From positions 4,901 to 68,900 of the forward strand of contig DATKYS010000132.1 of assembly GCA_035528375.1 (NCBI GenBank): 64,000 bases of DNA, written 5' to 3'. The translations under genes and the position numbers were made by a program. A model generated the notes under the pieces. The model saw nothing but the letters and a program-made list of their open reading frames with translations, ran no database searches and was not told the DNA's origin. Source of the DNA: a bacterium. Lineage in GTDB: Bacteria; RBG-13-66-14. This document shows, piece after piece, positions 35,149 to 55,657 of this stretch (the first letter of the stretch is position 1; each line of letters opens with the position of its first letter).

Positions 35149-35545
35149 CGGGGCGACCGATGGGCGAGGGCTGCCGCGTGTCCCCTCCCCCCGTTGGGGG
35201 GAGGGCTAGGGTGAGGGGTGGAAAGCGGCGGGGATAGGAATCCCCGCCCTACATTTAAGGAAAGCTCGTAGGAGCCGACGGGCCAGGGTGAGGGTCGGGG
35301 TAGGGAATGTGGAAACGGCGGCCCGCGACCTCCCTCTCCCTCCGGGAGAGGGATTGAGGGTGAGGGCCACTATTGATAAAAGACGGCGTGGACTAAAGTC
35401 CCCGCCCTACATTAAGGAAGCGCAACGCCCTCGTAGGGGCCGACCTTTAGGTCGGCCCGCGGGCGGGTGTGGACACCCGCCCCTACTGCGGAGGTGTGAG
35501 CGTGATACTCGAAAGGGCCCGCCCAAAGGCAGGCCCGTTTGCGAC
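35149..35545. repeat. Protein-free stretch of degenerate intergenic repeats
   Basis: No gene seen. It holds several imperfect copies of a short unit ending CCGCCCTACATTAA (35243-35258, 35398-35415, and a relative near 35852-35866), plus the dyads GGCCGACCTTTAGGTCGG and GGGTGTGGACACCC. The composition stays GC-rich. Looks like accumulated REP-type elements. Confidence 0.55.
35433..35485. repeat. Two-palindrome intergenic repeat, copy 1
   Basis: GTAGGGGCCGACCTTTAGG followed by TCGGCCCGC and the dyad GGGCGGGTGTGGACACCCGCCC (split here), ending CCCTAC; the whole unit is bounded by GTAGGGG and CCCCTAC. The same two parts recur at 44311-44428, there separated by 64 bases. Confidence 0.65.
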
Positions 35546-35633: not shown

Positions 35634-35675
35634 TCCCCCCCATCTTGGGGGGGCACAGTCGCGGGGGGAATTTTT
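35634..35675. repeat. 42-bp C/G-tract repeat, copy 1
   Basis: CCCCCCATCTTGGGGGG, then GCACAGTCGCGGGGGGAATTTTT. An almost exact copy lies at 35733-35774. A C6-ATCTT-G7 hairpin is possible. Confidence 0.7.
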
Positions 35676-35732
35676 CTCGATTCGACAATCACCGCCGCGT
35701 GCGGAGCCCGGTTTCCGTTTGAAGCCCCTCAA

Positions 35733-35774
35733 CCCCCCCATCTTGGGGGGGGCACAGTCGCGGGGGGAATTTTT
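35733..35774. repeat. 42-bp C/G-tract repeat, copy 2
   Basis: Same as 35634-35675 apart from one extra G in the G-run. The bases between the copies (35676-35732) are unrelated. Confidence 0.7.
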
Positions 35775-35895
35775 AAAATTAGCTACAATTGCGTTGCGTA
35801 CGGAAGGTAAATTTCCCGTTCTCGGCGGCCCGCAGAGGACTCGTCCTACGGGGCCGCCCTACATTAACAGAAACGGCGGAATTGTAAACATGCGT

Positions 35896-35968
35896 CGCTC
35901 GCGGCGTTGACTTTCGAATGGATTAACCGTTCGTCGCGGAACCGGGGTCCAGCGCCCCGCGCTTCAAG
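35896..35968 (-). repeat. Class-II-tRNA repeat, distal copy after tRNA-Ser(GGA)
   Basis: Read in tRNA direction: GCGCGGGGCGCTGGACCCC hairpin-and-tail, then TTCCGCGACGAACGG, TTAATCCATTCGAAAG and CGCCGCGAGCG. A run of 40 bases is identical to the proximal copy at 35991-36060. Confidence 0.75.
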
Positions 35969-35990
35969 AAAAAATAAGGAACTGAAAAAG

Positions 35991-36060
35991 GGCTCCACTC
36001 GCGGCGTTGACTTTCGAATGGATTAACCGTTCGTCGCGGCTACGCTGGCGGCTCAGCCGC
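35991..36060 (-). repeat. Class-II-tRNA repeat, proximal copy after tRNA-Ser(GGA)
   Basis: Starts directly after the tRNA CCA end. Opens with the perfect hairpin GCGGCT-G-AGCCGC, then GCCGCGACGAACGG, TTAATCCATTCGAAAG and ends CGCCGCGAGTGG. Confidence 0.78.
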
Positions 36061-36218: not shown

Positions 36219-36282
36219 CAGCTCGCGGCGGTTGTTATTGAATGTATGGAACCGTTCGTCGCGGCTACGCTGGCGGTGCATT
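36219..36282 (-). repeat. Class-II-tRNA repeat, distal copy after tRNA-Ser(CGA)
   Basis: In tRNA direction: CCAGCGTAGCCGCGACGAAC, GGTTCCATACATTCAATA, CAACCGCCGCGAGC. Shares GCGTAGCCGCGACGAACGGTT with the copy at 35991. Confidence 0.65.
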
Positions 36283-36303
36283 GTACTGACAGATTTTTAA
36301 GCA

Positions 36304-36470
<167 letters not shown>

Positions 36471-55337: not shown

Positions 55338-55422
55338 GCGAGAGTGGCGGAACTGGCATACGCGCTGGATTTAGGTTCCAGTGGCTCCGGCCGTGCGGGT
55401 TCAAGTCCCGCCTCTCGCACCA
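55338..55422 (+). tRNA. tRNA-Leu (anticodon TAG)
   Basis: 85 bases with encoded CCA. Acceptor GCGAGAG/CTCTCGC, anticodon stem CTGGA/TCCAG around TTTAGGT (UAG), long variable arm (TGGCTCCGGCCG region), T-arm GCGGG-TTCAAGT-CCCGC. Two tandem repeats follow its 3' end. Confidence 0.96.
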
Positions 55423-55492
55423 GCATGATGCTGGACCCTGTTCCGCGGGGAACGGTTTGAGTCATTCGTGAGCAATCGCCGCGAGCGGGGCC
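55423..55492 (+). repeat. Class-II-tRNA repeat, proximal copy after tRNA-Leu
   Basis: Starts right after the CCA end. The CCA itself takes part in the perfect hairpin CCAGCAT-G-ATGCTGG. Then ACCCTGTTCCGCGGGGAAC, GGTTTGAGTCATTCGTGAG, CAATCGCCGCGAGCGGGGCC. Confidence 0.8.
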
Positions 55493-55520
55493 TTTTTCTA
55501 ATCGCCAAGTTTATTTAAAC

Positions 55521-55590
55521 GCATGATGCTGGACCCTGTTCCGCGGGGAGAGGTTCAGTTTATTCCCACACAATCGCCGCGAGCGGGGCC
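55521..55590 (+). repeat. Class-II-tRNA repeat, distal copy after tRNA-Leu
   Basis: 98 bases after the first copy. GCATGATGCTGGACCCTG and TTCCGCGGGGA are identical; the middle is diverged (AGGTTCAGTTTATTCCCAC); the end CAATCGCCGCGAGCGGGGCC is identical. Confidence 0.8.
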
Positions 55591-55657
55591 AAGTCCAATT
55601 TTAATAGCACCAACCTCGCCGTATGCAGACCGACATTGACCACCTCACCCCCCTCCG

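What the first reader, a model, noticed from the sequence alone, without database searches (positions are those of the whole stretch)
55338..55590. Same repeat pair follows tRNA-Leu: link to class II tRNAs
tRNA-Leu(TAG), 19 kb from the serine tRNAs and on the other strand, is also followed by exactly two copies (55423-55492, 55521-55590) in the same orientation relative to the tRNA. In the first copy the CCA end itself lies in the hairpin CCAGCAT-G-ATGCTGG. All three class II tRNAs here (long variable arm) carry the pair; none of the three class I tRNAs (Phe, Ala, Thr) does. The element could steer 3' processing, protect CCA ends, or mark insertion sites limited to these tRNAs. Six tRNAs are a small sample.
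Basis: partly seen in the sequence, partly recalled or inferred. Interest (0 to 1): 0.8.

Follow-up and report, generated by a model that had tools for sequence, protein, structure and literature searches.

The report
Tiny mobile repeats hugging tRNA ends
The repeats after these tRNA genes belong to a family of about 80-100-base elements, so far seen only in the little-known bacterial group Coatesbacteria, that look mobile and sit exactly at the ends of tRNA genes of both classes, after stop codons of protein genes and beside other hairpin repeats; they are not a feature of class II tRNAs.

Summary
The repeat pair after tRNA-Leu(TAG) is real. It belongs to a dispersed family (75 copies at E<=1e-3 in the draft genome, dozens in three congeners). 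In 84,980 reference species a strict pattern scan found convincing copies only in Candidatus Coatesbacteria. Each copy has a paired hairpin whose sequence varies freely, then two invariant CGCG blocks 35-38 nt apart; there is no ORF. The class II rule fails: class I Lys, Arg, Pro, Ala and Met tRNAs carry it at their 3' ends; class II Leu(GAG), Leu(TAA) and SeC lack it. A bias remains at 3' ends (7/11 versus 5/35, p=0.003, post hoc), not at 5' ends. Copies also abut tRNA 5' ends in reverse orientation (including tRNA-Ala in this window) and stop codons; in a congener some interrupt or follow REP palindromes. Flanking duplications of 15-26 bp of the target occur at about a quarter of copies, and several protein-gene sites are filled in one species and empty in another. 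Best reading: a non-autonomous mobile element favouring gene ends and feet or loops of DNA hairpins. No dedicated integrase, reverse transcriptase or Cas1 was found; the RAYT serves another repeat. The enzyme is unknown.

The parts
55338..55422 (+). tRNA-Leu(TAG), class II host gene
   Evidence: ARAGORN and Rfam
55420..55498 (+). element copy 1 after tRNA-Leu: head hairpin CCAGCATGATGCTGG (55420-55434, using the tRNA CCA), core CCGCGGGGAACGG...CGCCGCGAGCGG, T tract
   Evidence: core E=2.3e-11
55521..55590 (+). element copy 2 after tRNA-Leu (left outer stem bases eroded)
   Evidence: E=1.7e-9
36299..36379 (-). element copy 1 after tRNA-Ser(CGA): head CCAGCGCGGGGCGCTGG directly after CCA
   Evidence: E=1.3e-12
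36221..36264 (-). eroded element copy 2 after tRNA-Ser(CGA)
   Evidence: E=9.5e-5
35986..36060 (-). element copy 1 after tRNA-Ser(GGA): head GCGGCTGAGCCGC directly after CCA
   Evidence: E=6.8e-8
35886..35965 (-). element copy 2 after tRNA-Ser(GGA)
   Evidence: E=5.8e-11
   Evidence: core 35659-35709, E=2.3e-8
35759..35781 (+). truncated second element 5' of tRNA-Ala(CGC), left half of core only (weak, E=3.7)

Best explanation
A family of about 80-100-bp non-autonomous mobile DNA elements. Each has a terminal hairpin (head) of freely varying but complementary sequence, followed by a core of two invariant CGCG-containing blocks at fixed distance (35-38 nt start to start), probably bound by a protein. 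The element inserts next to DNA that can form a hairpin or next to a gene end: the two ends of tRNA genes with the head facing the tRNA, directly after stop codons, and in or beside REP palindromes. Insertion is associated with a duplication of 15-26 bp of the target. The unit [element + duplicated target end] then multiplies in tandem (period about 100 bp) and may occasionally move to another locus. Shown: the family, its anatomy, gene-end placement, direct flanking duplications, interruption of a REP with a 15-bp duplication, filled versus empty protein-gene sites between congeners, and absence of RVT_1, Cas1 and surplus tyrosine recombinases by family search. Inferred: active transposition, hairpin feet as the common target, protein binding of the core, and an unidentified host enzyme.
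For: Copy number: 87 core matches at E<=1 in G000; 36, 40 and 88 in three congeners; none in G004 and G005. Pattern scan of 84,980 species plus profile check: real copies only in Coatesbacteria. Flanking direct duplications above the 99th percentile of a permuted null at 17 of 75 copies, about 0.75 expected. Cognate tRNA 3' ends of 16-18 nt repeated between tandem copies (Lys x3, Leu-CAA; shorter in Ala-TGC, Pro-TGG) and 15 nt of the tRNA-Pro 5' end in its 5' array. The pilC gene end (24 bp, two mismatches) flanks the copy on both sides in G000 and is single in the empty G001 site. A G003 copy interrupts a REP with ACGTAGGGGCCGACC on both sides; another follows a whole REP that recurs after it. 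Filled/empty sites: pilC, C39:14144, C21, C46, gatC. ORF ends peak at head start, offset 0 to +9. Head hairpin of at least 5 bp in 86% of 157 copies versus 7.6% shuffled; 100% pairing with 13 double changes in 12 heads. CGCG spacing 35-38 in 149 copies.
Against: No autonomous copy, transposase or terminal inverted repeat was found. Most single copies at protein genes (C39, C21, C46) lack a visible duplication. Many tRNA loci are occupied in all congeners, which suits retention for function as well as mobility. Exact abutment to stop codons and mature tRNA ends is not explained by a simple hairpin target; several stop codons show no obvious hairpin at the insertion point. All genomes are drafts, and filled/empty calls rest on one contig each.
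Confidence: 0.6

Rival explanations
1. A functional RNA or DNA boundary element kept by selection at gene ends (tRNA trailer/leader processing, transcript stabilisation or termination), comparable to the rtT repeats after E. coli tyrT; tandem copies arise by unequal recombination.
For: Conserved core, covarying head hairpin, shared occupancy of many tRNA loci across four species, copies between promoter and tRNA or within co-transcribed genes, T tract at many copies, 3' bias to class II tRNAs.
Against: Reversed orientation at tRNA 5' ends and reversed copies at some stop codons do not suit one RNA function. No terminator-like site in the two tRNA-Leu copies. RNA folding z-scores mostly near zero. 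No covariation in the core. Presence/absence at protein-gene sites and insertion inside a REP.
Confidence: 0.2
2. Locally expanding tandem duplication only: gene end plus adjacent hairpin duplicated by slippage or unequal crossing-over, without transposition.
For: Units include the gene end; 39 of 75 copies have their nearest relative in the same array.
Against: The same core occurs at dozens of unrelated loci on many contigs; single copies have duplications on both sides (pilC, the REP in G003); 36 of 75 copies have their nearest relative elsewhere.
Confidence: 0.1
3. REP/REPIN-type element moved by the Y1 (RAYT) transposase present in the genus.
For: Y1_Tnp genes occur in G000-G003, which carry the element, and not in G004-G006.
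Against: The RAYT genes inspected are flanked by canonical GTAG-tagged REPs, with no credible element copy nearby. The element has no constant tetranucleotide at the hairpin foot and shows target duplications, which single-strand Y1 transposition does not make (established knowledge). G006 has a diverged copy but no RAYT.
Confidence: 0.07
4. Integron attC-like or other tyrosine-recombinase cassette sites placed at gene ends.
For: Size, position directly after stop codons, variable centre with conserved ends, tandem arrays with tRNA-end repeats.
Against: 0 of 75 copies have paired RYYYAAC/GTTRRRY core sites. No genome searched has more than two PF00589 matches, and family relatives without the element have two as well, presumably XerC/XerD.
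Confidence: 0.03

Closest known systems
REP / BIME / REPIN repeats with RAYT transposases (PMC3733652, PMC3116915)
   Same: Short, non-coding, hairpin-bearing, extragenic, many copies, often just after stop codons; present in the same genome as a separate family.
   Different: No GTAG/CGTC-type foot tag, no association with the RAYT genes inspected, a long conserved core beyond the hairpin, target duplications, exact placement at both tRNA ends.
MITEs of DDE insertion sequences
   Same: Small non-autonomous mobile elements with target duplications.
   Different: No terminal inverted repeats noticed, no parent insertion sequence found, duplications long and variable (15-26 bp).
rtT repeats after tyrT of E. 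coli (Rfam RtT; from memory)
   Same: Tandem repeats directly after a tRNA, each containing a copy of the tRNA 3' end.
   Different: No Rfam match; dispersed over many tRNA and protein genes; also at tRNA 5' ends in reverse.
Integrative elements using tRNA 3' ends as att sites (PMC9897764)
   Same: Duplicated tRNA 3' end downstream of an intact tRNA; tandem accretion.
   Different: About 100 bp instead of kilobases, no integrase, many unrelated targets including tRNA 5' ends.
Integron attC sites
   Same: Structured sites of similar size abutting stop codons.
   Different: No attC core sites, no integron integrase identified.

Membership tests
REP/REPIN (RAYT-mobilised) | Constant tetranucleotide tag at the foot of the hairpin | tested here: not met
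   Flank of the head is CCA, TAG, TGA or tRNA 5' end complement, no common tag
REP/REPIN (RAYT-mobilised) | RAYT gene flanked by copies of the repeat | tested here: not met
   RAYT loci carry GTAG-REPs and no credible core hit; the flanks of one of the seven loci (L305) were not inspected by eye
MITE | Terminal inverted repeats shared with a parent transposon | tested here: inconclusive
   No terminal inverted repeat seen by eye and no parent element found, but no dedicated search for DDE transposases was run
MITE | Target-site duplication | tested here: met
   17 of 75 copies above the 99th percentile of the null; pilC and REP in G003
Integron attC site | Paired core sites RYYYAAC ... GTTRRRY | tested here: not met
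   0 of 75
rtT RNA family | Match to the Rfam model | tested here: not met
   No Rfam match at E<=10 in 55420-55640
tRNA-targeted integrative element (tyrosine recombinase) | Dedicated integrase in the genome or element | tested here: not met
   At most two PF00589 genes per genome, as in relatives without the element
Retroelement / casposon derivative | Reverse transcriptase or Cas1 in carrier genomes | tested here: not met
   No RVT_1 and no Cas1 in G000-G003
Intrinsic terminator | GC-rich stem directly followed by a U tract | tested here: not met
   No terminator-like site in the two tRNA-Leu copies nor on the transcribed strand of the serine copies; only these loci were scanned

The most novel reading that the evidence does not exclude
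A mobile element family with a so far undescribed integration mechanism that recognises gene ends or the foot of DNA/RNA hairpins rather than a sequence. It would place copies exactly at mature tRNA 5' and 3' ends and stop codons and copy 15-26 bp of the target, using an unknown host enzyme. This would offer a model for how structured sites such as attC come to lie directly behind genes.
Probability: 0.25. Interest if true: 0.85.

Novelty: new variant of a known kind. Interest (0 to 1): 0.6.

Why it matters
Very small mobile repeats are common in bacteria, but how they choose their sites is mostly unknown. Here one family is found exactly at the mature ends of tRNA genes and at stop codons, with duplicated targets, in both orientations and with a hairpin whose sequence drifts while pairing is kept. 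It gives a comparative system (four related genomes, filled and empty sites) for asking how a 100-bp element finds gene ends without a known transposase, and it warns that 'tRNA-associated' repeats can be mistaken for tRNA-specific regulatory elements.

Tried and rejected
Class II-only rule: refuted by the tRNA survey. RAYT as mobiliser: tempting because PF01797 occurs only in the genus, but those genes sit between canonical GTAG-REPs. Reverse transcription primed by tRNA CCA ends (suggested by the 18-nt duplication starting after A58): no RVT_1 in any carrier genome, and the 5'-end duplication does not fit. Cas1/casposase: absent. attC/integron: 0 of 75. Tyrosine recombinase: one lies about 400 bp from the C21 copy, but no genome has more than two, including relatives without the element. 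Core as a structured RNA: no covariation. Intrinsic terminator: not found at tRNA-Leu. Viral or plasmid carriage: one viral-contig pattern hit with no profile support, no plasmid match. Literature: searches found no description of such elements; only six open papers mention Coatesbacteria together with genome. A direct copy of a tRNA-Pro array unit at the C125 stop codon is suggested by a shared head and a 13-nt spacer match (TCCCGACGCCCCG), but the cores are only 69% alike, so it is a hint, not proof.

Full report
Observation. The three class II tRNAs of the window each have two 3' copies (the second after Ser(CGA) is eroded), and the three class I tRNAs have none at the 3' end.

Whole-genome test of the class rule. 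The own assembly (G000, 2.63 Mb, 144 contigs) has 46 tRNAs. 3' copies within 45 nt follow Leu(CAA, CAG, TAG), Ser(CGA, GGA, TGA), Tyr and also the class I tRNAs Lys(TTT), Arg(CCT), Pro(TGG), Ala(TGC) and Met(C107). Leu(GAG), Leu(TAA) and SeC lack them. Fisher test for 3' ends: 7/11 versus 5/35, p=0.003; for 5' ends: 2/11 versus 7/35, p=1.0. So there is a post hoc bias at 3' ends, not a rule.

Anatomy. A copy reads: head hairpin, a linker of about 8-10 nt, CCGCGRSGA..., about 20 variable nt, CGCCGCGAGCG..GCC, then often a T-rich stretch. The two CGCG blocks start 35-38 nt apart in all 149 copies measured. Hairpins of at least 5 bp occur in 86% of 157 copies, against 7.6% after shuffling. Twelve different 17-nt heads pair 100% with 13 double changes. 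The core shows conservation but no covariation, which suggests protein binding rather than an RNA fold; that is inference. No Rfam family matches.

Where it sits. Heads lie directly after CCA or overlap it. Reverse copies have their heads directly before the mature tRNA 5' end. At protein genes heads directly follow stop codons (C39:14144, C21, C46, C47 pilC, C51:35182, C125, gatC), or, in reverse, the tail does (C62, C51:58739 kbl and others). Over 49 non-tRNA copies in four genomes, ORF ends pile up at offset 0 to +9 from the head (12 cases, against a background of well under one per offset). In congener G003 one copy splits a REP palindrome and others follow REP ends or another element's head.

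Duplications and mobility. 17 of 75 copies have flanking direct duplications above the 99th percentile of permuted pairs. Examples: 16-18 nt of the tRNA-Lys and tRNA-Leu(CAA) 3' ends, 15 nt of the tRNA-Pro 5' end, 24 bp of the pilC end, and 15 bp of a REP. pilC, C39:14144, C21, C46 and gatC are filled in G000 and empty in at least one congener. tRNA arrays are mostly at shared positions with differing copy number.

Distribution. Same-genus genomes carry 36, 40 and 88 copies; same-family G004 and G005 none, G006 one marginal hit, although G006 has a diverged tandem version at the C51:35182 stop codon. A pattern scan of the reference species collection gave 69 stretches, of which only the Candidatus Coatesbacteria contigs have profile support.

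Enzyme. Y1 transposases occur in carriers only, but belong to GTAG-REPs where inspected. RVT_1 is absent from all carriers, Cas1 is absent, and no genome searched has more than two tyrosine recombinases. DDE transposases were not searched. The mobiliser is therefore unknown, and host recombination or template switching at hairpins remains possible.

Verdict. Confident: dispersed element family, not class II-specific. Likely (0.6): non-autonomous mobile element with target duplication and preference for gene ends and hairpin feet. Open: the enzyme, and why placement is exact at stop codons and mature tRNA ends. All genomes are drafts, and relatives' loci were chosen partly because they carry the element.

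Noticed in passing
L304 1435-1902 (G000:C91) and L308, L310, L306, L307: RAYT-type Y1 transposase genes in the genus, flanked by canonical GTAG-tagged REP palindromes (GTAGGGGCGGACCTTCAGGTCCGCC, GTAGGGCGGGGACTTTAGTCCCCGCC), a second repeat family in the same genomes.
   Followed up: partly
window about 35430-35500 and 35800-35860: REP-like palindromes of the GTAG family (e.g. GTAGGGGCGGGTGTCCACACCCGCCC) next to the tRNA-Ala/Ser cluster.
   Followed up: no
L046 (G000:C140:12159, tRNA-Met): tRNA-Met is followed by a different tandem repeat (AAGGGGGCCAGTATAGTGGGCCCCC) whose units also end in copies of the tRNA 3' end.
   Followed up: no
L262, L260, L261 (G006): In another genus of the family, tRNA-Lys, tRNA-Ser(TGA) and tRNA-Met are followed directly by unrelated tandem repeats, as if tRNA 3' ends in this group gather repeats generally.
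   Followed up: no
G000:C73:65169-65398 (downstream of tRNA-Gly TCC): Three diverged copies in reverse orientation (tail towards the tRNA) with repeats of the tRNA-Gly 3' end CCCGCTCCA.
   Followed up: partly
L191 (G000:C125:17390): Copy after a protein gene ends with TCCCGACGCCCCG, the spacer found between units of the tRNA-Pro(TGG) array in C120, hinting at a unit moved from there.
   Followed up: partly
L292 (G006:C28, after the C51:35182 orthologue): Diverged tandem version of the element (head GCAACGCTATGCGTTGC, CGCG blocks about 37 nt apart) at the same stop codon in another genus.
   Followed up: partly
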